A model generated the notes under the pieces. That model searched no databases. It saw only the letters and a program-made list of their open reading frames with translations, and was not told the origin of the DNA. Shown here one piece after another: positions 238 through 9,663 of a stretch of DNA of 64,000 nucleotides. The DNA comes from Lachnospiraceae bacterium NK4A144 (GTDB taxonomy: Bacteria; Bacillota; Clostridia; Lachnospirales; Lachnospiraceae), in assembly GCA_000424365.1 (NCBI GenBank), contig AUJT01000001.1:372001-436000 (forward strand), written 5' to 3'. Position numbers and translations under genes: made by a program. The stretch's first letter is position 1, and each line of letters begins with the position of its first letter.

Positions 238-1836
238 ATGAAAAAAACTTACAATGTATTAGACGAACCGTGGATACCTGTTAAGTATCTTAATGGCAAG
301 AAATCAATCCTAAGTCTTATTGATGTTTTGGAACAGGCAGACAAAATAGAAGATATTCTTCCGCCGGTATTCAGAAATGACACTGTTTATATCTACTATG
401 TGGGCATGATCCGACTGCTGACTACCATAATTGAGGCAGCGTATTACAAAAAGGAGACAAAGTATGCTTCAAAAAATCTGAAATACCTTGATGTTTTGAA
501 TGAACAGGGGCTGAATTCCGAAGTTGTCAAAAACTATCTTGAAAAGTATCATGACCGCTTTGATGTACTTTCGGAAACTCACCCATTCCTACAAAATATT
601 AACCTTAAGCCGGAGCTTGAGACTGCTGATCATTCAAATAATGCTTTTCTAACATGGAACCCTATGGCACCGTCCGAAAACAACTTCATTTTCGGACGTA
701 CAAGGCGACAAATCGAAGGGTCAAAGAACAATACGTCTATTCTTTCTCAGTATCAGATAGTAAAAGAAGAATTCGTACATATACTTATCTATCTAGCGAC
801 TATGGGAAATTATCCGGCCGCTACAGTATCATTAGAAAGTTCTCTAGGAAAGAAGATAAGCATTTTTGCTGTAATAAAGGGTAGAAATCTTAAAGAAACT
901 ATTCTTGCAAACATTCTTCCTCTCGATGAAAGCTCAAGACCTTTGGAAGATGACGAAATTCCGGATATGCCGGTATGGGAAATGGAAAACATCCATGATA
1001 TCGAGAAATACGATAAAGATCAGTTCGTTCATAACCTTCTTTGTAGAGCGTTTTTTCCAGGCATATCAGTTTTAGGGGCAGGTTTTAATGAGGATGGTCA
1101 GCTTACGGGAATGGTTCGTAATCGTATAACCAAACGTATCGACCCAAAATATGGTCCTTCTTATGAAATGACGAACTCCATATCCGATCTTGTAGCAGAC
1201 CCATTTGCAATAGTGTCATATAAAGGTGATGATGGAAAGTTCGTAACGATTCCTTTTGATCCGATAAGGAATACTGCTCATGGCATTTGCATAATGGCTA
1301 CAAAGCATACTGATAAATGGAACAACTGTAAAATAATAAATAACCGAAAGATAGATAATGAATATAAGGTCCAAATATATTATCGGGAACTAGACGGAAT
1401 GAATGTTACTTTACGCAGTTGTGGCGCATTAAATAATTGTAATGGGGATATATGGGAAAAGCTAAAGGATACTGATAATCATATTCAGGCAGTAAAGTAT
1501 CAGGAAAACTACAGTAAAGCGAGAAGTCATCTTAAAAGAACACTTTCTACTGCACTGGCAGGATCAACTGTAATTTGTTCATCAGCAGAAAAAGAACTGT
1601 CTGACTGGATGGAACACGATTTCTTTACAAAGTTTTCAGAAGATCTTTCAAAAGAAGTCAGTAGTGCTGCATTAACGGCAACAGATCGGTTGGTTAAAGA
1701 GACAGTACATATTTTTGATAAATATACAGAAACTTCTGATTCCTTTTTTACTGTTGTAAGTGAAAGACGGGCTCTTGCTAGTCATCTTAAGAAAATAGCG
1801 CAGATCAAGGAGAAGGATAAAAATGGAAGAAAGTAA
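238..1836 (+). CDS. casA: Type I-E Cascade large subunit Cas8e (Cse1/CasA)
   Basis: Large subunit of the type I-E Cascade complex, which recognises the PAM and helps load Cas3 on target DNA. The 532-residue length fits the family. The N-terminus carries the LDEPWIPV signature (residues 8-15) seen in nearly all Cse1 proteins. A WNPMAPSENNFIFGR segment near residue 140 lies where the family has its DNA-contacting loop, and the C-terminal third is helical. It is the first gene of a tight casA-B-C-D-E run and overlaps casB by 14 bases. The ATG is preceded only by a weak GGAATAA site. Identity is secure from motif, length and neighbours; the PAM cannot be read from the protein. Confidence 0.96.
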   Translation: MKKTYNVLDEPWIPVKYLNGKKSILSLIDVLEQADKIEDILPPVFRNDTVYIYYVGMIRLLTTIIEAAYYKKETKYASKNLKYLDVLNEQGLNSEVVKNYLEKYHDRFDVLSETHPFLQNINLKPELETADHSNNAFLTWNPMAPSENNFIFGRTRRQIEGSKNNTSILSQYQIVKEEFVHILIYLATMGNYPAATVSLESSLGKKISIFAVIKGRNLKETILANILPLDESSRPLEDDEIPDMPVWEMENIHDIEKYDKDQFVHNLLCRAFFPGISVLGAGFNEDGQLTGMVRNRITKRIDPKYGPSYEMTNSISDLVADPFAIVSYKGDDGKFVTIPFDPIRNTAHGICIMATKHTDKWNNCKIINNRKIDNEYKVQIYYRELDGMNVTLRSCGALNNCNGDIWEKLKDTDNHIQAVKYQENYSKARSHLKRTLSTALAGSTVICSSAEKELSDWMEHDFFTKFSEDLSKEVSSAALTATDRLVKETVHIFDKYTETSDSFFTVVSERRALASHLKKIAQIKEKDKNGRK

Positions 1837-2365
1837 AAACACTGATATCGAATTTATAAAAGCACTGAGAACCAACCTCAACAAAGGACATCCGGCAGTA
1901 CATACGTTAAAAAGAGCCTTTGGGACAGGGTGTACAGATGACCTGCATAATTATATTTCTTTTTTAAGCCTTATACGTGAAGCTGATCTTCAGGATATCA
2001 AGTTTAACAGGGATTTATACTTTTTGATTGCATGTCTTTTCTGTGCGAATGAACGTCCGGAAGGCGAAACTGATGCTTCGAAAAAGAGTTACGTAAGGAC
2101 AGAGCAGCTATTCGGAAGATTTTATAACGATCCGGACACATCAGATACATCAAGAATGCTTATTCAAAGGTTTCTTGAGACACCTTACGACAAAAACGGC
2201 ACATTTGAAACAGAGTTTACAAAGCTGATGAAGAGAGCTTTATCGAAAAAGTGCTCAAATGAGGTTTTAGATTATATAAACCTAATTCGTGATTTCAAGT
2301 TTTGGAACAATAGAGAAAATAAAGTACAAAGAAAATGGGCAGAAACAATAATCTGTGCTAACTAA
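1823..2365 (+). CDS. casB: Type I-E Cascade small subunit Cse2 (CasB)
   Basis: Small, all-helical subunit present as a dimer along the belly of Cascade, where it contacts the displaced DNA strand. The 180-residue length is typical. The sequence is rich in Arg/Lys helices, for example RTEQLFGRF near residue 92, as expected for this poorly conserved family. The start has a strong AGGAGAAGG ribosome binding site inside the end of casA, so the two genes are probably translationally coupled. Position between casA and casC supports the call more strongly than sequence alone. Expressed with the rest of the operon; nothing looks broken. Confidence 0.93.
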   Translation: MEESKNTDIEFIKALRTNLNKGHPAVHTLKRAFGTGCTDDLHNYISFLSLIREADLQDIKFNRDLYFLIACLFCANERPEGETDASKKSYVRTEQLFGRFYNDPDTSDTSRMLIQRFLETPYDKNGTFETEFTKLMKRALSKKCSNEVLDYINLIRDFKFWNNRENKVQRKWAETIICAN

Positions 2366-2376
2366 AGGAGAAAAAT

Positions 2377-3591
2377 ATGAAGAATGCCTTGATCACAACA
2401 ATGATGCTTAAGTCTTATGGTCTTTCTCTCCTAAACCGTGGAGAAGACGGCTTTGGTAAGCAGGGAATATATGGCGGAGTTAACCGAGCTAGAGTATCTT
2501 CCCAGTGTCTAAAGAAAGCTCTTCGTAAGATGGGTGTATTCAATGAAAACATCAGGTCCGCACATCTGGAAGATCTTATTGAAAAGATTCTTTCAGAAAT
2601 GATACAGTCCGGTTCGATAGATGAAAAGGATGTTGATTCTTATGGTACAAAAATTTGCGAAGCTCTTGGCTGTGACTGGTCGAAGAAGGGTAATCAGGGA
2701 AAGGATGCAGAAAAGAAGAGGACTATCGCTGTTACTTCTTTTGCAGAGGTTTTGGCAGTCGTAAATGCAGCAACATCTGTTAAGACCACGGATGAAAAGG
2801 AGATAAAAAAGGCTATTACAGAAGCTCTTTCAAAGACACGTATTTCTGCTGAGAAGGCTATGTTTGGAACGATGGTTGCATCCAAAGACAGCGAACTGAA
2901 GACAGTAGATGGCGCAACACAGATTGGTCAGAGTTTTTCCATTGACGAATATGCTCCGGAAAATGACTTTATCGCCGCAACATTTGAAGGCGGTAAAGCC
3001 GATGATAGTGATCCGTTTTATGGTAGTCTTAATGATTTTATCGTTGAAAGAAAGACAGAATCCGGTTCCGAAACACTTACAAACTCTTGGATGAATGCGA
3101 ACGTAATGTTCACGCCGACCTGCATCAACGTTAATGAGTTGATCAGAAATCTTTCTCAGAGTACAAATCATACCGACTTAGAGATAGCCAAAGATATGGT
3201 ACTCGCTGATGCAAAGACATGTATCACTGATTTCCTTGAGAATCTGCCTATAACTGATCCTTCTGCAAAACAGAATAGCTGCTCATCGCATCCGGCTCCG
3301 TCTATTTACTACATTGAGTTTATCAAGAACGGTAATTGTCAGTATACAGATTTCGAAAAGGTTATACGTCGGAACAACAAAGGAATCACAGAACAAGGAA
3401 TTGAAAGAATCCTTGAATTTGCGCAGGACATGACCTTTAGAAGAGGCGAAATTGAAAGATACGTAATGCTTTCCGGACCATATAAGAACTACGAGAAAGA
3501 ATTTGAAGCCGTAGGGGTCAAGGTTGTTCATTCCCTAAACGATCTTAGTACGATCGTCAATACTGAAACAGAAAGACTGGTGTCTGAATGA
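2377..3591 (+). CDS. casC: Type I-E Cascade backbone subunit Cas7e (Cse4/CasC)
   Basis: Backbone subunit that polymerises (six copies in known I-E complexes) along the crRNA spacer. At 404 residues it is slightly longer than the E. coli protein. The diagnostic N-terminal motif is present: LNRGEDG followed by GGVNRARVSSQCLKKAL around residues 19-49, an RNA-binding signature of Cas7e. A clean AAAGGAG ribosome binding site lies 7 bases before the ATG. The stop codon overlaps the casD start as ATGA, so casC and casD should be coupled. The gene is intact and the assignment is secure. Confidence 0.96.
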   Translation: MKNALITTMMLKSYGLSLLNRGEDGFGKQGIYGGVNRARVSSQCLKKALRKMGVFNENIRSAHLEDLIEKILSEMIQSGSIDEKDVDSYGTKICEALGCDWSKKGNQGKDAEKKRTIAVTSFAEVLAVVNAATSVKTTDEKEIKKAITEALSKTRISAEKAMFGTMVASKDSELKTVDGATQIGQSFSIDEYAPENDFIAATFEGGKADDSDPFYGSLNDFIVERKTESGSETLTNSWMNANVMFTPTCINVNELIRNLSQSTNHTDLEIAKDMVLADAKTCITDFLENLPITDPSAKQNSCSSHPAPSIYYIEFIKNGNCQYTDFEKVIRRNNKGITEQGIERILEFAQDMTFRRGEIERYVMLSGPYKNYEKEFEAVGVKVVHSLNDLSTIVNTETERLVSE

Positions 3592-4121
3592 AATATATGG
3601 AACTCGAACTGAATGGTTTTATGCAACATTATCCATCGAGAAATCATGTTGTTGCAGTACCATCCAGCGGTTATTTCAAGACGGAAAAGGTTCCCACCAG
3701 AAATGCAGTCCTCGGTATGATCGGGGCTGCATTAGGGGTAACCCGGGAAAACAAAGAAACATTAAGAAAACTCGATGCTTCTCTTGAAATAAAGTACAAA
3801 CTTCTAAAAAAGGGTGTAGCCGATACTGATTTTCAGACGGCACATCCTCTTCATGATGGGGACAGATTTCTTTCTGTAAAAGGCAAGCCCAAGTCAGAGA
3901 AAGAAAATACAGTGATCAAACGTGTTGAGTATCTATATGATTATAAGTTTTCTGTTTTTGTAGGTGGAGAAGAGGACATTCTTAACGAAATAAGAGCTGC
4001 ATTCGAATGCCCTGTTTATCCGCCTGTTATGGGAAAAAGAAGCTGCATTGCTCCAAAAATGGAATTTAACGAAGGTTTTGTAGAGATAGGAGATATTGCT
4101 GATGTATATGACTGTCCTTAA
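3588..4121 (+). CDS. casD: Type I-E Cascade subunit Cas5e (CasD), short form
   Basis: Cas5e binds the 5' handle of the crRNA and caps the Cas7 filament. The N-terminus shows the expected glycine-containing start (MELELNGFMQHY), the VPTRNAVLGMIGAALG motif near residues 35-50 and the YPPVMGKRSC segment near residue 145 that matches YTPYLGRRSC in E. coli Cas5e. The protein stops about 25 residues after that segment. It has 177 residues against 224 in E. coli, so the usual C-terminal ~45 residues are missing. The casE start and its ribosome binding site lie inside the last codons, so the truncation is built into the operon and is not an obvious frameshift. Confidence 0.9.
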   Translation: MKYMELELNGFMQHYPSRNHVVAVPSSGYFKTEKVPTRNAVLGMIGAALGVTRENKETLRKLDASLEIKYKLLKKGVADTDFQTAHPLHDGDRFLSVKGKPKSEKENTVIKRVEYLYDYKFSVFVGGEEDILNEIRAAFECPVYPPVMGKRSCIAPKMEFNEGFVEIGDIADVYDCP

Positions 4122-4686
4122 GGTAAATTTCAACACATTGGAAAAGCAGGAATACTTTATGGACTTCGAAAACAGGGATTTTCTACATAAATGGCTGACT
4201 TCACAGGTAGACACTTCAAGAGAAGAAAGTCGTATGCTTTACTCATTACAGTATTCCGGTAATGAACTGTTTTTCTATATTCAGTCAGATAAGCCGTTTC
4301 CAAAGAAGAATATCGAAAAAGCAGGAATGGCATTCGTTAAGGAATTTGAACTACCCGCTGTTCACAATGGCGACCGCATAATGTTTAAGCTTTTCTGCAG
4401 TGCCCATAAAATTGACTCAAAGACCGGAAGACAACGATTTCTTCAATCAGATGAAGAAAGGCTGGATTGGTTATCAAGAAAAACGACGGGTATTTTAGGC
4501 GAAACAAATGCTAAAGAAATAAGGATAAGTAATATTATGATAAAAGACAAAATAAGTGTACCCGGAGTTGAATTTATGGGAATCGCTACTGTAACTAACG
4601 AAGATGCTTTTTGTGATATGGTAATAAAAGGTGTGGGAAAGTGTAAGAATTACGGCATGGGACTTGTAATGTATAAACAATTGTAA
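4102..4686 (+). CDS. casE: Type I-E crRNA-processing endoribonuclease Cas6e (Cse3/CasE)
   Basis: Cas6e cuts pre-crRNA at the base of the repeat hairpin and stays bound to the 3' stem-loop. The start is placed at the ATG lying 9 bases after AGGAG; an upstream in-frame TTG has no suitable spacing. The product is 194 residues, normal for the family. It begins MYMTVLKVNF like other Cas6e proteins and ends with a glycine-rich GKCKNYGMGLVMYK segment, the Cas6 G-rich loop. It overlaps casD by 20 bases. An AT-rich leader and the first CRISPR array follow directly. Confidence 0.94.
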   Translation: MYMTVLKVNFNTLEKQEYFMDFENRDFLHKWLTSQVDTSREESRMLYSLQYSGNELFFYIQSDKPFPKKNIEKAGMAFVKEFELPAVHNGDRIMFKLFCSAHKIDSKTGRQRFLQSDEERLDWLSRKTTGILGETNAKEIRISNIMIKDKISVPGVEFMGIATVTNEDAFCDMVIKGVGKCKNYGMGLVMYKQL

Positions 4687-4747: not shown

Positions 4748-5391
4748 CTCATCCCCGTGTATACGGGGGTTATCCTATCCGAGCGCTGCCCCTGACTCCT
4801 GCGTGAGCGCTCATCCCCGTGTATACGGGGGTTATCCTGTTAAAAGCCCGAAGAAACCGACGCCGTTTGTACTCATCCCCGTGTATACGGGGGTTATCCT
4901 AGGCAGATAGAGCAGCAGAGCTCTCTGGGAGCCTCATCCCCGTGTATACGGGGGTTATCCTGCGTATTCAAGCCGTCGAGGTAAATTTTATTTTCTCATC
5001 CCCGTGTATACGGGGGTTATCCTAAAGCAACGGCGACGGCGAAGCTTGCAAATCCTCTCATCCCCGTGTATACGGGGGTTATCCTAACTACGCTATGACC
5101 GGAACATCACGTTATGGCTCATCCCCGTGTATACGGGGGGTATCCTAAAAGAGCGGCCGCCGAAAAAAGTAAGCTCAAACTCATCCTCGTGTATACGGGG
5201 GTTATCCCACGGGCGGAGGACTAGCCATCCTTAACAAAGACTCATCCCCGTGTATACGGGGGTTATCCCTATGCGACAGTTGACGACATGGCGGCTCTTT
5301 ACTCATCCCCGTGTATACGGGGGGTATCCTGTTGTTGGTAAGTCTATGGTTTGCGCGTGGTGCTTATTCCCGTGCATACGGGGGATGTCTT
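4748..5391 (+). CRISPR. CRISPR array 1, type I-E, 11 repeats and 10 spacers
   Basis: Repeats of 29 bases recur every 61-62 bases, giving spacers of 32-33. Each repeat divides exactly as in E. coli I-E: 5 bases CTCAT, stem CCCCGT, loop GTAT, stem ACGGGG, 8-base handle GTTATCCT. Starts are at 4748, 4810, 4872, 4933, 4995, 5057, 5118, 5180, 5241, 5302 and 5363. Repeat 8 has a stem mismatch (CCTCGT). Repeats 7 and 10 have handle GGTATCCT. Repeats 8 and 9 end CCC. The last repeat is degenerate (TTATTCCCGTGCATAC core), marking the old end, so the leader side is casE-proximal. Spacers look unrelated to one another. Confidence 0.98.
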
Positions 5392-5407: not shown

Positions 5408-6316
5408 ATGGACGAAATAAACAAAAAACTATTGACGAGAACAGAAGACAGAATTTCTTTTTTGTATATAGAAAAATCAAAAATATATCAAAGTGAATAT
5501 GGTGTAGAAATCATAAGAGGAAATGAACACATAGAAATTCCAATCACAACGATAAATGTTATCATTATTGGGCCAGGAGTATCTATTACTCACAAAGCAG
5601 TATGTAATATTGCTGCTGCGGGATGTACAATATGTTTTACTGGGGAAGAAATAAATTGTTTTTATTCTTATGGCGAACCAACTACTCATTCTTCTAAAAA
5701 TCTTCTTAAACAAGTATATTGCCATGAAAATAAACAAGAACATCTAAAGGTCGTGCACAGGATGTATGAAATTAGATATCCAAACGATCACTTAAAATCA
5801 AAAACAATTGATGAATTACGTGGCATTGAGGGACAGAAGGTTAAAAGTGCATATGAAAAAGCTGCAAAAATAAATAATCTGCAATGGAACGGCAGAGCAT
5901 ATAATGTAGATGATTTTTGTTCGCAGGATATTCCTAATCAGTATCTAACAGCAATAAATCACACGTTATATGCAATAGTAACAGCTATGGTAGTTAGTCT
6001 TGGATTTTCTCCGGCAATAGGTTTTATACATACTGGCCACATGAATTCATTTATATTCGACATAGCAGATTTATACAAAGAAAAATATATCATTCCTTTG
6101 GCATTTTCTTTGTCGATAAATGGCTATTATGATCGACACATGATGCTATCTGCTTTTCAATCTATGATAGTAGAAGAGAAGTTGATGAAAAAGATGGTCA
6201 ACGATCTATTAAGCTTATTTGTTGTCGAAAAATCGGTTTCTCCAGAAATTGAATTACAGTTATGGGGCGACAAACATTTTGGAATTTTTGGAAAAAATTA
6301 TGCTTCAAAGCCTTAA
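5408..6316 (+). CDS. cas1: Type I-E CRISPR integrase Cas1
   Basis: Cas1 with Cas2 inserts new spacers at the leader end of the array. The 302-residue protein aligns along its length with E. coli Cas1. The metal-binding residues are visible: Glu in ELRGIEGQKV near residue 140, His in IGFIHTGHMNSF near 208, and the two Asp of FIFDIADLYK near 218-221. The start is the ATG 8 bases after GAGG, just beyond the last degenerate repeat of array 1. The C-terminal codons (GIFGKNYASKP) lie inside a sequence homologous to the leaders of the other arrays. There is no separate cas2 after it; Cas2 is fused to Cas3 downstream. Confidence 0.95.
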   Translation: MDEINKKLLTRTEDRISFLYIEKSKIYQSEYGVEIIRGNEHIEIPITTINVIIIGPGVSITHKAVCNIAAAGCTICFTGEEINCFYSYGEPTTHSSKNLLKQVYCHENKQEHLKVVHRMYEIRYPNDHLKSKTIDELRGIEGQKVKSAYEKAAKINNLQWNGRAYNVDDFCSQDIPNQYLTAINHTLYAIVTAMVVSLGFSPAIGFIHTGHMNSFIFDIADLYKEKYIIPLAFSLSINGYYDRHMMLSAFQSMIVEEKLMKKMVNDLLSLFVVEKSVSPEIELQLWGDKHFGIFGKNYASKP

Positions 6317-6335
6317 AAATCGCTTAAATACGGAT
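6281..6335 (+). promoter_or_regulatory. Leader of the mini-array, overlapping the cas1 3' end
   Basis: The last ~35 coding bases of cas1 plus 19 bases beyond its stop align with the leader of array 2: AATTTT, GAAAAAAT, ATG, TTCAAAG, CTT, ATCG and TAAATAC appear in order before CTTTTCCCC. The leader is therefore partly coding. Activity as a promoter or integration site is inferred from the homology. Confidence 0.65.
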
Positions 6336-6425
6336 CTTTTCCCCGTATACACGAGGGTTATCCTGCATGGAATAAAGTCGGAACAGGCTCCTTTGCCTTT
6401 TCCCCGTATACACGGGGGTATCTCA
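6336..6425 (+). CRISPR. CRISPR mini-array, 2 variant repeats and 1 spacer
   Basis: Two repeats 61 bases apart flank one 32-base spacer between cas1 and cas2-3. The 5' bases (CTTTT) match array 2, but the hairpin loop is ATAC instead of GTAT, so the core CCCCGTATACACGGGG is the exact reverse complement of the core in the main arrays. Repeat 1 has a stem mismatch (ACGAGG) and keeps the GTTATCCT handle. Repeat 2 has a decayed handle (GTATCTCA) and abuts the ribosome binding site of the next gene. It is probably old and little used. Confidence 0.85.
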
Positions 6426-6440
6426 TAGAAAGGGCTATTT

Positions 6441-9137
6441 ATGAAAAGTCTTTGTGTTTTGGAATTTTATACTCCTTCCGATGAAGTACGAGGGAAAACA
6501 CGCAGATACCTTTATGAAATACGCCCAAATGTTTTTGTTGGCCGTATCTCTACAAGTGTCCGAGATACTTTATGGAGAGAAATTGAAAACTGTAACACAA
6601 AAGCAACCTTGATTTACACAAGTGCTACAGAACAGGGATTTTCTGTAAAAACTTCTGGAGAAACTAACAAATTTACGGATTTTGATGGTGTATTAATGCC
6701 TTCAGTGAAAAAATCTATTCTTTCTTTATCTAGCCTATATGCGAAACCTCAGAAAAAACTTGTTGATCACTTGACGGATGTTGGTGTTATAGCTGAAGCT
6801 CTTATGAAAAAAGGGAGGGCAAACCACATAATGCGTGTTTTATCTGAGAGATTTGAGATAGATCAGGATAAACTTATATCATCAATAAGTTTTTTATGCG
6901 CCCTTCATGACATAGGGAAGGCGCATCCCGGATTCCAAAAAGCTTTAGCCGAAAAGTCTGAGCTTATTGGTGATACTTTGGATAAGATGATGGATTCCGG
7001 GATGATTCTTTCTGAAGATGAGACTATTAGACATGAACGATATTCTAAAGAGATCGTTAAAGAGCATCTGTCACATCATGAAGGATGTTCCGAGGAAATA
7101 TCGGAGCTATTCTCCTGTATCCTTTTATTTCATCACCAAAATAAAGGCTCTGGAATCATAGATTCTATGAATGAAATTGGCATAGATCAGAAGCGGCTAA
7201 TCGAATGGCACCATGTTCAGCAAGAGATAATATCTATCATCGCAAAGAAATGGATATTTTACCCCGAGGTCGGAAGAATCAGCGGTAACATCGGTATTAA
7301 CGGGGCGTTATATATCTTTCTTTCAATTCTTGTAACTTCCGACTGGATCGCTTCAAGCAAAGAATGGAACGACTGCCTTAAGGAAAATGATAATGATCCG
7401 GTTAAGAGCGCAGAACAGTTCATTTGCAAGAATCTTCTTGACTACGTCCCAATAGGAGAGCAATTCAAGGGAATAAAATGGGAAGATGTTTTTGATTTTC
7501 CCATGAATGAACTACAAAAGACTCTTTCGACAATGGATATCCATGATTCAGATCTATTGCTCTTGGAATATCCCTGTGGATACGGAAAAACAGCATCCGC
7601 TTTATTAGCAATGTCTAAATTTTGGAAAAACTCAGGTGGCTGTATCTTTGTAACGCCTACTATGATCACAGCTAAAGCTATGCGAGATGAAGTAAAGGGA
7701 ATCGCAGAGAGAGCAGGCCTTGAAATAGAAATACCGGAATTTGACAGCAGCGTCATGTGGAATGAGGAAAAAGAAGGTATTATTCCTGGAGACCTTTGGG
7801 TAAACAGGTCCAGACATCAGATGCTCTACCCATTTGCAGTAGGCACTGTCGATCAGGTTCTTAAATGTATTCTCCATTACCGTTATTCCTGCATCGGTAC
7901 ACTAGGACTTTCTGATAAAGTCGTAATAATTGATGAAGTTCATGCATATGATGCTTATATGATAGAAGAGATAAAAAGCCTTATCAGATGGTGCAGATTC
8001 TTCAAAATCCCGGTGATATTGCTATCTGCAACATTGCCTACGGAAACAAAAAAGGAACTATTCAAGGCAGCGGGCATGAAATCCGGTCAAGATATCAGTA
8101 ATGAATATCCTTTAATCTCTGTAATAAAGGATAAGCAACTGATACAAAAAGTTACTGTTTGCAATGGAAGAACATTCCCTGTAAAGACAACTACTGTAAA
8201 TGATCTTCAGGAATATATGTTCCAAGAGGCACTAACCCATAAAAAAGGAAGCCTTGCTCTGATAGCCCCGACTGTGGATGATGCATTTGAGTTATACGAC
8301 AGGGTAAAGGAAAATGTACATGATTGCGAAGTAATCCTCTATCACGGAAGAGATACTATCTCACATAAAAGACAAAAAATTAGTAAATTACTGCACCTGC
8401 TTGGAAAAGACAAAAGTAATCGACCAGATAAAGTAATCGTTATAGCGACATCTATAATTGAGCAGTCGTTAAACGTGGATTTCGACAGGATGGTAACTGC
8501 ACTGGCTCCAGTAGATCTGCTTATACAGAGGCTTGGACGAGTTTGGCGTTTTTCAGAAAATAGTACAGAAAAAAATCCTTTTGTTATCGTTGTGCCGGAA
8601 GAATATAAAGCTCTACTGAAAATTTATAGAGAAAAGGAACTCTTAGACAAGACAGTGGATGCTTTTCGGAATACAGATACCATCAACACAGTATCTGATG
8701 TCCGTAACCTAATCGATGAAGTGTATAATGGTTTCGAGAGCAGCAAAGACGAAAGTTCTCGATGCTACGCCGGATATAACTGCCTGAGCAATCCATTTAT
8801 GGACGAAAGTATCATAGTAAAAGGTGAGGATGATGCGTATCGACAGTTTGACAAAAAACTTCCACAGACTAGGGAGACGACGTATCCTACGGTTCAGATC
8901 GCAATTCTGGATCATGAACCTATGGAAACAATAGATTATGACGCTGTCTGCAAGATAATGCAGAACAATGTTATAAATGTTGCTGAATACAAGATAAATG
9001 ATTTTGCTCCATATGAAAATAAGATAAATCCTTTGAAAAATGTAAAGGTTTTTATCGGAGATAAGAATTTATCTATAACAGGCATTACCGGAGAACAGAT
9101 GACCTTAACAGAAGACGGACTGAGATTTAAGGTATGA
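6441..9137 (+). CDS. cas3: Cas2e-Cas3 fusion: adaptation subunit joined to HD nuclease-helicase
   Basis: The 898-residue protein has two parts. Residues 1 to about 90 are a complete Cas2e: a first strand MKSLCVLEFY with the acidic residue at 8, then RGKTRRYLYEIRPNVFVG, VRDTLW near 40 and GFSVKTSGE near 66, matching E. coli Cas2 in order and spacing. The rest is Cas3. It has an HD nuclease with His110, His156-Asp157 (CALHDIGKAHPGF) and His231-His232. It also has an SF2 helicase with Walker A PCGYGKT (378-384), DEVH (498-501), SATLP (529-533) and QRLGRVWR (696-703). AAAGGG lies 6 bases before the ATG, so the fusion is translated from the Cas2 start. Cas2-Cas3 fusion is characteristic of type I-F; here every other subunit is I-E. 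It would tie spacer acquisition to target degradation. Confidence 0.93.
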   Translation: MKSLCVLEFYTPSDEVRGKTRRYLYEIRPNVFVGRISTSVRDTLWREIENCNTKATLIYTSATEQGFSVKTSGETNKFTDFDGVLMPSVKKSILSLSSLYAKPQKKLVDHLTDVGVIAEALMKKGRANHIMRVLSERFEIDQDKLISSISFLCALHDIGKAHPGFQKALAEKSELIGDTLDKMMDSGMILSEDETIRHERYSKEIVKEHLSHHEGCSEEISELFSCILLFHHQNKGSGIIDSMNEIGIDQKRLIEWHHVQQEIISIIAKKWIFYPEVGRISGNIGINGALYIFLSILVTSDWIASSKEWNDCLKENDNDPVKSAEQFICKNLLDYVPIGEQFKGIKWEDVFDFPMNELQKTLSTMDIHDSDLLLLEYPCGYGKTASALLAMSKFWKNSGGCIFVTPTMITAKAMRDEVKGIAERAGLEIEIPEFDSSVMWNEEKEGIIPGDLWVNRSRHQMLYPFAVGTVDQVLKCILHYRYSCIGTLGLSDKVVIIDEVHAYDAYMIEEIKSLIRWCRFFKIPVILLSATLPTETKKELFKAAGMKSGQDISNEYPLISVIKDKQLIQKVTVCNGRTFPVKTTTVNDLQEYMFQEALTHKKGSLALIAPTVDDAFELYDRVKENVHDCEVILYHGRDTISHKRQKISKLLHLLGKDKSNRPDKVIVIATSIIEQSLNVDFDRMVTALAPVDLLIQRLGRVWRFSENSTEKNPFVIVVPEEYKALLKIYREKELLDKTVDAFRNTDTINTVSDVRNLIDEVYNGFESSKDESSRCYAGYNCLSNPFMDESIIVKGEDDAYRQFDKKLPQTRETTYPTVQIAILDHEPMETIDYDAVCKIMQNNVINVAEYKINDFAPYENKINPLKNVKVFIGDKNLSITGITGEQMTLTEDGLRFKV

Positions 9138-9203: not shown

Positions 9204-9663
9204 CTTTTCCCCGTGTATACGGGGGTTATCCCTGCGCGAACTGAAAGAGAAAGCACCAAACGAGACTTTTCCCCGTGTATACGGGGGTTATCCTACGTCG
9301 GGTCGCTCCTGGTCGGAACCAACAATCCTTTTCCCCGTGTATACGGGGGTTATCCTATATGATCTTGTCAATGAATCGACAGGTGAAACCTTTTCCCCGT
9401 GTATACGGGGGGTATCCCTGACGACGGTGGGCGCCGTCATGATCGGGGCGGCTTTTCCCCGTGTATACGGGGGTTATCCCGCGCCGTACTGGGAAAATAT
9501 CTCGCGGAAATGCTTTTCCCCGTGTATACGGGGGTTATCCCATCCCTGCATATCGTAAGAGCGGAACCATTCACTTTTCCCCGTGTATACGGGGGTTATC
9601 CTATCAGTGAACAGGCTATTGATGTTCAAAATGCCTTTTCCCCGTGTATACGGGGGCTCTAAA
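9204..9663 (+). CRISPR. CRISPR array 2, type I-E, 8 repeats and 7 spacers
   Basis: Repeats of 29 bases start at 9204, 9266, 9328, 9390, 9452, 9513, 9574 and 9635, with 32-33-base spacers. Stem, loop and handle equal those of array 1 (CCCCGT, GTAT, ACGGGG, GTTATCCT), but the first five bases are CTTTT rather than CTCAT. Repeat 4 carries the handle GGTATCCC. Repeats 1 and 5 end in CCC. The last repeat loses its handle (GCTCTAAA), marking the distal end. No spacer is obviously shared with array 1 by eye. Confidence 0.98.

What the first reader, a model, noticed from the sequence alone, without database searches (positions are those of the whole stretch)
6441..9137. Cas2-Cas3 fusion inside a type I-E locus
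The first ~90 residues of this Cas3 align in order with E. coli Cas2 (acidic residue at 8, RGKTRRYLYEIRPNVFVG, VRDTLW, GFSVKTSGE), and there is no separate cas2 in the locus. Fusion of Cas2 to the Cas3 N-terminus is the defining trait of type I-F. Here Cas8e, Cse2, Cas7e, Cas5e, Cas6e, Cas1 and the repeats are all I-E. This looks like a convergent fusion that would place the interference nuclease in the Cas1-Cas2 integration complex and could favour primed adaptation.
Basis: partly seen in the sequence, partly recalled or inferred. Interest (0 to 1): 0.92.

Follow-up and report, generated by a model that had tools for sequence, protein, structure and literature searches.

The report
Natural Cas2-Cas3 fusion in type I-E
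In this bacterium's CRISPR immune system the part that files away new virus DNA (Cas2) and the enzyme that shreds invading DNA (Cas3) are one protein, a fusion thought special to another CRISPR subtype, and it turns up again in a giant phage and in two unrelated bacteria.

Summary
ORF 6441-9137 (898 aa) is a complete Cas2e (residues ~1-90) joined almost without linker to a complete I-E Cas3 (~91-898). Profiles, PDB sequence matches and a predicted structure agree, and no other Cas2e was found in the genome. It is not a sequencing error: a ~467-kb phage-like contig (L179) carries a 40%-identical full-length fusion without an ATG/GTG/TTG at the junction. It is not I-F: its other cas genes and its Cas3 are I-E, though divergent. 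Two bacteria of one other class (G1449, G1550) carry a second fusion clade; the Cas3 tree and an AU test (p 0.0003) reject one origin. Fusion therefore arose at least twice in I-E, besides I-F. 64 of 67 Cas2e-bearing genomes sampled showed no fusion. Most likely it builds an I-F-like Cas1-Cas2/3 complex that couples target destruction to spacer capture (inferred). A complication: the phage record keeps the Cas2 domain but shows no cas1 and a decayed array, so the domain may serve Cas3 without Cas1, or use host Cas1. I found no I-E Cas2-Cas3 fusion in the papers searched.

The parts
238..1836 (+). cas8e (cse1)
   Evidence: Pfam PF09481 85.8 bits, cut-off 24.7; NCBIfam casA_cse1 50.1, below its cut-off 70.05
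1823..2365 (+). cse2 (cas11e), weak profile match
   Evidence: Pfam PF09485 E 4.8e-4, 21.0 bits, below cut-off 24.6; right place and size
2377..3591 (+). cas7e
   Evidence: Pfam PF09344 153 bits; NCBIfam casC_Cse4 118.5, below its cut-off 178.05
3588..4121 (+). cas5e
   Evidence: Pfam PF09704 71.9 bits; NCBIfam casD_Cas5e 71.2, cut-off 68.95
4096..4686 (+). cas6e
   Evidence: Pfam PF08798 71.9 bits; NCBIfam casE_Cse3 35.9, below its cut-off 45.2
4748..5390 (+). CRISPR1: 11 repeats of 28 nt, 10 spacers of 33-34 nt; degenerate last repeat, so leader on the left
5408..6316 (+). cas1e (302 aa), motifs that hold the catalytic residues present (RGIEG 138, HTGH 208, DIADLYK 218)
   Evidence: NCBIfam cas1_ECOLI 283.8 bits, cut-off 215.6
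6336..6424 (+). mini array: 2 repeats, 1 spacer, between cas1 and cas2-cas3; its leader overlaps the end of cas1 and resembles that of CRISPR2
6441..9137 (+). cas2-cas3 fusion gene (898 aa)
6441..6710 (+). Cas2e domain, residues 1-90
   Evidence: PF09707 and TIGR01873; model residues 2-89 on E. coli Cas2 5dqt_M, Z 13.9, 2.2 A over 88 residues
6711..6755 (+). junction, residues ~91-105, no added domain
   Evidence: alignment with separate Cas2 and Cas3 of three relatives
6756..7367 (+). Cas3 HD nuclease domain, residues ~106-309 (H110, HDIGK at 156)
   Evidence: PF18019 87.9 bits
7554..9134 (+). Cas3 helicase and C-terminal region, residues ~372-898 (GYGKT 380, DEVHA 498, SAT 529, QRLGR 696)
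   Evidence: TIGR01587 205.2 bits, cut-off 102.45
9204..9662 (+). CRISPR2: 8 repeats of 28 nt, 7 spacers

Best explanation
[quoted passage not shown] Shown: intact sequence, predicted folds, Cas1e alongside, fused homologues, two origins. Inferred: the Cas2 domain dimerises, four Cas1e join it, and the complex carries two Cas3 arms, as in I-F Cas1-Cas2/3. Cascade recruits a Cas3 arm to a target; Cas3 cuts and reels DNA; fragments pass to the attached integrase, and the bound Cas1 restrains Cas3 until a target is found. The fusion would make permanent the Cas3/Cas1-Cas2 contact that ordinary I-E systems make in passing. It probably arose after cas3 moved next to cas2 and the stop codon between them was lost.
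For: Cas2e and Cas3 profiles in one ORF. AlphaFold2 model pLDDT 84, pTM 0.82: residues 2-89 fit Cas2 from E. coli Cas1-Cas2 structures, residues 91-896 fit T. fusca I-E Cas3 (Z 31.7). Cas1e present with the motifs that hold its catalytic residues. Full-length fused homologue at 40% identity, with no ATG/GTG/TTG in codons 60-118, so its Cas3 cannot start separately at those codons. A second fusion clade, G1449 and G1550, each with cas1 directly upstream. Unfused loci with cas1-cas2-cas3 next to each other, L129 and L191. The I-F linker is also ~10 residues (95-104), and Cas1-2 is stated to affect Cas3 in the absence of fusion (PMC12259127, passages seen).
Against: No experiment, and no complex was modelled. 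The phage fusion has no cas1 detected in its 467-kb record (the record may be a fragment), so Cas1 binding cannot be the only reason to keep the domain unless host Cas1 is used. The model is poor at the end of Cas2 (residues 76-90, pLDDT < 50), where E. coli Cas2 contacts Cas1 (recalled). The window gene has in-frame ATG86 and GTG89, so some separate Cas3 could be made. No protospacer was found for the spacers tested, so activity of the arrays is unshown.
Confidence: 0.62

Rival explanations
1. The fused Cas2 domain mainly serves Cas3 (dimerisation, DNA contact or restraint of the nuclease) and not spacer capture; adaptation in the host is secondary or lost.
For: The phage locus keeps the Cas2 domain at the same identity as the Cas3 part (35/90 vs 313/785 identical) with no cas1 found in the record and a decayed array; its Cas2 differs at three positions kept in the other 7 of 8 compared Cas2 (G18 to V, G34 to S, acidic 82 to N).
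Against: The window locus has an intact cas1e next to the fusion and three arrays with mostly uniform repeats; both clade-B bacteria have cas1 directly upstream. The phage record may be a fragment and could use host Cas1.
Confidence: 0.25
2. Both products exist: the full fusion and a shorter Cas3 started inside the gene at ATG86 or GTG89.
For: In-frame ATG86 and GTG89 at the junction; G1449 has ATG100 in its linker.
Against: The phage homologue has no ATG/GTG/TTG in codons 60-118; no clear ribosome-binding site before ATG86 in the window, by eye.
Confidence: 0.1
3. Sequencing or assembly error joining two adjacent genes.
For: There is an A6 run at codons 90-91; and one-base shifts at some other positions near the junction would leave a start codon for Cas3 (73 of 168 simulated shifts).
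Against: Independent full-length fused homologue in another contig and two more fusions in other genomes, one a single contig. Neither a gained nor a lost base within the A6 run leaves an ATG/GTG/TTG start for Cas3 before H110.
Confidence: 0.02
4. A type I-F Cas2/3, or an I-F gene captured by an I-E locus.
For: Same domain order as I-F Cas2/3.
Against: I-F Cas3f profile 34.8 bits against a cut-off of 565.95; the best whole-Cas3 profile is the general PRK09694 Cas3 model (216.1 bits, itself below its cut-off of 569); Cas2e profile above cut-off. T. fusca I-E Cas3 Z 31.7 versus 14-17 for I-F chains.
Confidence: 0.01

Closest known systems
Type I-F Cas2/3 (Pseudomonas aeruginosa Cas1-Cas2/3, PDB 9p11, 8flj; PMC12259127)
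   Same: Cas2 at the N-terminus of Cas3, short linker, Cas1 encoded alongside
   Different: Cas2 and Cas3 here are of the I-E families, as are the Cascade genes, Cas1 and repeats; the fusion arose separately
Type I-E of E. coli and Thermobifida fusca (separate Cas2 and Cas3)
   Same: All gene families; Cas2 and Cas3 folds
   Different: There cas2 and cas3 are separate; cas3 lies upstream of cas2 in 56 of 57 related loci that hold both, whereas here cas3 lies last and is fused
Type I-E Cas2-DEDDh (DnaQ) fusion (PDB 8fy9)
   Same: Cas2e fused to a C-terminal partner; seen in the window's own family (L002, Cas2 + RNase_T)
   Different: Partner is an exonuclease, not Cas3
Type I-E Cas3-Cse1 fusion (actinomycetes; recalled, and seen in L108)
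   Same: Cas3 fused to another I-E protein
   Different: Partner is the Cascade large subunit, and Cas3 is the N-terminal part
I-E variants I-E2, I-E3, I-E5 of the 2025 classification (PMC12669027, passages)
   Same: Rare I-E derivatives
   Different: Defined by HNH-Cas5, PD-(D/E)xK-Cas11 or a transposon; no Cas2-Cas3 fusion in the passages seen

Membership tests
Type I-E CRISPR-Cas | Cas8e (Cse1) large subunit | tested here: met
   PF09481 85.8 bits, cut-off 24.7; NCBIfam below cut-off
Type I-E CRISPR-Cas | Cse2 small subunit | tested here: inconclusive
   PF09485 21.0 bits, below cut-off 24.6; position and size fit
Type I-E CRISPR-Cas | Cas7e, Cas5e, Cas6e | tested here: met
   Pfam above cut-off for all three; of the three NCBIfam I-E models only that of Cas5e passes
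Type I-E CRISPR-Cas | Cas1e | tested here: met
   TIGR03638 283.8 bits, cut-off 215.6
Type I-E CRISPR-Cas | Cas2e sequence family | tested here: met
   TIGR01873 and PF09707 above cut-off
Type I-E CRISPR-Cas | Cas2 and Cas3 as separate proteins (usual, not strictly defining) | tested here: not met
   One ORF; no other Cas2e found in the genome
Type I-E CRISPR-Cas | 28-nt palindromic repeats, ~61-nt period | tested here: met
Type I-F CRISPR-Cas | Cas2 fused to the Cas3 N-terminus | tested here: met
Type I-F CRISPR-Cas | Cas3f family | tested here: not met
   TIGR02562 34.8 bits, cut-off 565.95
Type I-F CRISPR-Cas | Cas1f | tested here: not met
   TIGR03637 64.5 bits, cut-off 150
Type I-F CRISPR-Cas | Cas8f, Cas5f, Cas7f, Cas6f | tested here: not met
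   The effector genes match I-E families; no I-F effector model was reported for them at E 0.001
Cas1-Cas2/3 integrase-nuclease complex | Physical Cas1 binding and hexameric assembly | not testable with these tools
   Single chains only could be predicted

The most novel reading that the evidence does not exclude
Cas2-Cas3 fusion is a recurrent solution in type I-E, reached at least twice apart from I-F, and in one lineage it has entered a jumbo phage that threw out cas1 yet keeps the fused Cas2: either a Cas1-free, Cas2-regulated Cas3, or a phage effector that borrows the host's Cas1 to write spacers into the phage's own array.
Probability: 0.35. Interest if true: 0.85.

Novelty: new variant of a known kind. 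Interest (0 to 1): 0.73.

Why it matters
Whether Cas3 and the Cas1-Cas2 integrase work as one machine outside type I-F has been argued from biochemistry and models (PMC12259127, passages). Two independent natural fusions inside I-E are evolutionary evidence that they do, and supply single-gene proteins on which interference-coupled adaptation can be tested. The phage version, apparently without Cas1, separates the roles of the Cas2 domain and could show what Cas2 does for Cas3 itself.

Tried and rejected
Sequencing artefact: tested by in-silico one-base shifts at each position from codon 81 to 108. Within the A6 run neither kind of shift leaves an ATG/GTG/TTG for Cas3 before H110, but 73 of 168 shifts elsewhere near the junction do, so this test alone was not decisive; the independent homologue L179 is.

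Homologues: the genome-contig scan with P0001 alone found none. In the PF09707 counts, frames are stop to stop; a few matches lie near a contig end and could be cut (for example G1214). G786, a PF09707 match in an 814-aa frame, was dropped as a low-complexity false hit. tblastn of P0001 in plasmids gave 216 records, none covering 80% of the query; tblastn of the G1449 fusion in plasmids gave 223, and the 10 rows shown start after the Cas2 part. tblastn of P0002 in the phage collection gave 3 records, none covering the Cas2 part. Two further viral scans found only the same contig.

Protospacers: CRISPR1 in 48 genomes of the genus, matches only to the arrays of the own genome (CRISPR2 and the mini array were not searched there); CRISPR1 (no match) and CRISPR2 against the phage collection (the single weak CRISPR2 record was taken for repeat similarity because it also carries a Cas3-like match, not checked further); exact cores of 3 of 18 spacers in IMG/VR, 0 matches. 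Phage array against the genus, 0 of 48, without a positive control.

Tree: 46, then 47, Cas3 rows picked by hand from 99 for nearness and spread; L191 left out as cut off. Quick IQ-TREE search, SH-aLRT only; many rows fail the letter make-up check; no I-F row was included, so the case against I-F rests on profiles and folds, not on a tree. The AU test was run on the 46-row set (three fused rows) only, on a group named (fused) before the tree was seen. One wrong-strand row (L004) was dropped from the Cas2 profile. In the structure look-up the I-F rows lie in about the same Z range as unrelated helicases.

Literature: 8 searches of open-access full text. Passages only were seen in PMC3150331, PMC7162821, PMC12259127 and PMC12669027; other papers only as search listings. 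Most subscription papers are not in the library and supplements were not open to me, so a listing of such a fusion elsewhere cannot be excluded.
Full report
What is there. The window opens with a type I-E locus on the + strand: cas8e, cse2, cas7e, cas5e, cas6e, an array of 11 repeats, cas1e, a two-repeat mini array, the 898-aa ORF of the finding, and an array of 8 repeats. In the 10 kb upstream of the window no cas3 was found by tblastn of the window's Cas3. The Cas proteins are I-E by Pfam, but divergent: Cse2 is under its Pfam cut-off, and Cse1, Cas7 and Cas6e are under their NCBIfam cut-offs.

The fusion. Residues 13-85 match the Pfam Cas2e family and 15-85 the NCBIfam one, both above cut-off; residues 106-309 match the Cas3 HD domain; the Cas3 core helicase covers 373-742. 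Residues 1-95 alone retrieve E. coli Cas2 (E 1e-7). Compared with separate Cas2 and Cas3 of three relatives, the join is almost seamless: Cas2 ends near residue 90 and the Cas3 alignment begins within a few residues of that. Motifs of the HD nuclease, the helicase and the Cas1 active site are present. An AlphaFold2 model from 39 sequences has mean pLDDT 84 and pTM 0.82; residues 2-89 align to Cas2 of an E. coli Cas1-Cas2-DNA structure (5dqt_M, Z 13.9, 2.2 A, 88 residues) and 91-896 to T. fusca I-E Cas3 (4qqx_G, Z 31.7, 3.2 A, 746 residues), while I-F chains score 14-17, little more than unrelated helicases in the same list. Residues 76-90 are modelled poorly.

Not an artefact. A scan of IMG/VR brought L179 (contig IMGVR_UViG_3300021431_002946, 467,383 bases), which encodes a 903-aa fusion aligned from end to end (40% identity). 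Its Cas2 part passes the Pfam cut-off (34.5 vs 24.7 bits) but gives no TIGR01873 hit at E 0.001. Between codons 60 and 118 it has no ATG, GTG or TTG, so its Cas3 cannot be started separately at those codons. The window gene has ATG86 and GTG89, so internal initiation is not excluded there.

Not type I-F. The I-F Cas3 profile scores 34.8 against a cut-off of 565.95 and Cas1f 64.5 against 150. The five Cascade proteins, the Cas2 part and the Cas3 part of the window all have their best match in L179 among 85 loci compared, two of which overlap on one contig (Cas8e 177 vs 71.6 bits, Cas7e 206 vs 94.4, Cas3 529 vs 323; for the Cas2 part the lead is slight, 67.0 vs 66.2). Window and L179 thus share a deep, separate I-E branch.

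A second origin. PF09707 searches of 397, 371, 378, 8 and 154 genomes (overlapping samples) gave 67 distinct genomes with a Cas2e above cut-off, after one false hit (G786) was dropped. Three are Cas2-Cas3 fusions: the window genome, G1449 and G1550. The rest have frames of 92-342 aa; the one frame of ~300 aa that I tested is a Cas2-exonuclease fusion (L002). In G1449 (single contig of 3,566,135 bases; from memory that is the size of the Symbiobacterium thermophilum chromosome, not verified) the order is cas1, cas2-cas3, then an ORF that looks like cas8e by eye, and its Cas2e part scores 73.8 bits by TIGR01873. G1550 likewise has cas1 directly upstream of the fusion. In a Cas3 tree the window and L179 pair with support 100, G1449 and G1550 with 99, and strongly supported branches lie between the two pairs. 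Holding window, L179 and G1449 together costs 76 log-likelihood units, p-AU 0.0003. Two loci have cas1, cas2 and cas3 in a row but unfused: L129, near clade B in the tree though with low support (about 640 nt between the cas2 and cas3 frames), and L191 from the same order as G1449 (about 185 nt). They are plausible forerunners. Among the 80 best Cas3 relatives from the genome collection 0 of 80 are fused, and cas3 lies upstream of cas2 in 56 of the 57 that hold both. In the window's own genus 3 of the 47 other genomes searched have any match: G742 is nearest (E 1e-77), with a separate cas2 and the order cas3-cas1-cas2-cas8e; G732 has a more distant Cas3 (E 5e-41) with a 300-aa Cas2 frame on another contig; G725 has a weak one (E 2e-9).

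The phage. In four 20-kb pieces of the contig, 61 of 62 ORFs of 150 aa or more lie on one strand, and GC is 26-30%. Of 10 proteins tested, 8 match phage families with a named function: DNA polymerase, PhoH-like, clamp loader, two RNA polymerase beta subunits, DnaB-like helicase, primase, anaerobic ribonucleotide reductase. I did not test structural genes. Its locus is cas8e-cse2-cas7-cas5-cas6e-array-cas2-cas3, and no Cas1 was found anywhere in the record, which may be a fragment. The array is decayed: five sites 58-61 nt apart (four with an exact GTTTTTCT handle, the fifth a variant), each directly after a 6-7-bp hairpin, but with differing stems; a sixth handle-like site before them has no hairpin. 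Such stems occur at 3.7% of positions in that locus; the sites were first noticed by eye, so this is not a blind test. Loss of repeat renewal without Cas1 would explain this; the 2025 classification reports the same pairing of missing adaptation genes and substituted repeats in type VII (PMC12669027, passage), and a survey of huge phages reports that almost all their CRISPR systems lack acquisition genes, Cas2 among them (PMC7162821, passage). Against that background, retention of a Cas2 domain as conserved as the Cas3 part (39% and 40% identity) is notable.

How it most likely works. Inferred from I-F: a Cas2 dimer core, Cas1 on its flanks, Cas3 arms on short tethers. In I-F the ~10-residue linker (95-104) lets Cas3 cover and uncover DNA-binding sites of the integrase (PMC12259127, passages); the junction here is of similar length. 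The fusion would tie every Cas3 to an integrase and so favour spacers from DNA being degraded. The phage case warns that the domain may also act on Cas3 alone, or through a host Cas1.

Known or new. The 2025 Cas1-2/3 structure preprint states that in type I-F Cas2 is 'uniquely fused' to Cas3 (passage). The 2025 classification lists I-E variants but no such fusion in the passages I saw. Eight searches of open-access papers found none in their listings; most subscription papers and all supplements were out of reach. I file it as a new variant of type I-E, convergent in architecture with I-F, not as a member of I-F.

Noticed in passing
window 6290-6440: A two-repeat mini array lies between cas1 and cas2-cas3; its leader overlaps the cas1 stop and resembles the CRISPR2 leader, and its last repeat ends 16 nt before the cas2-cas3 start, so Cas6e processing could set the 5' end of the cas2-cas3 message. 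cas1 is thus bracketed by arrays and could be lost by recombination, which would give the phage arrangement (inference).
   Followed up: partly
L179:5660-5960: Decayed CRISPR array in a 467-kb phage-like contig: five hairpins at 58-61-nt spacing with differing but paired stems and a mostly constant GTTTTTCT handle; missed by the repeat finder.
   Followed up: partly
L074:8927-12631, L078:9017-12709, L088:345-4052, L091:8957-12703: Type I-E-like Cas3 frames of Chloroflexi with about 330-360 residues before the HD domain that match a WCX domain (4 of 4 above cut-off), WYL (3 of 4 above cut-off) and, mostly weakly, helix-turn-helix domains (3 of 4): a regulator apparently fused to Cas3 (frames are stop to stop).
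   Followed up: partly
L131:9173-12628: Cas3 frame with ~250 residues before the HD domain that match no Pfam family at E 0.001.
   Followed up: no
L108:9818-14572: Cas3-Cse1 fusion (1585-aa frame) in Actinacidiphila alni, the kind recalled from actinomycetes.
   Followed up: no
G000:C12:216-7100 and G000:C27:12383-12580 (own genome): Two further Cas2 of family PF09827 and a distant Cas3-like protein (808-aa frame) on C12: probably other CRISPR systems in the same genome.
   Followed up: no
L055 (G742, same genus): I-E locus with the unusual order cas3-cas1-cas2-cas8e-cse2-cas7-cas5-cas6-array (42 repeat copies found) (cse2, cas5 and cas6 named by position and size).
   Followed up: no
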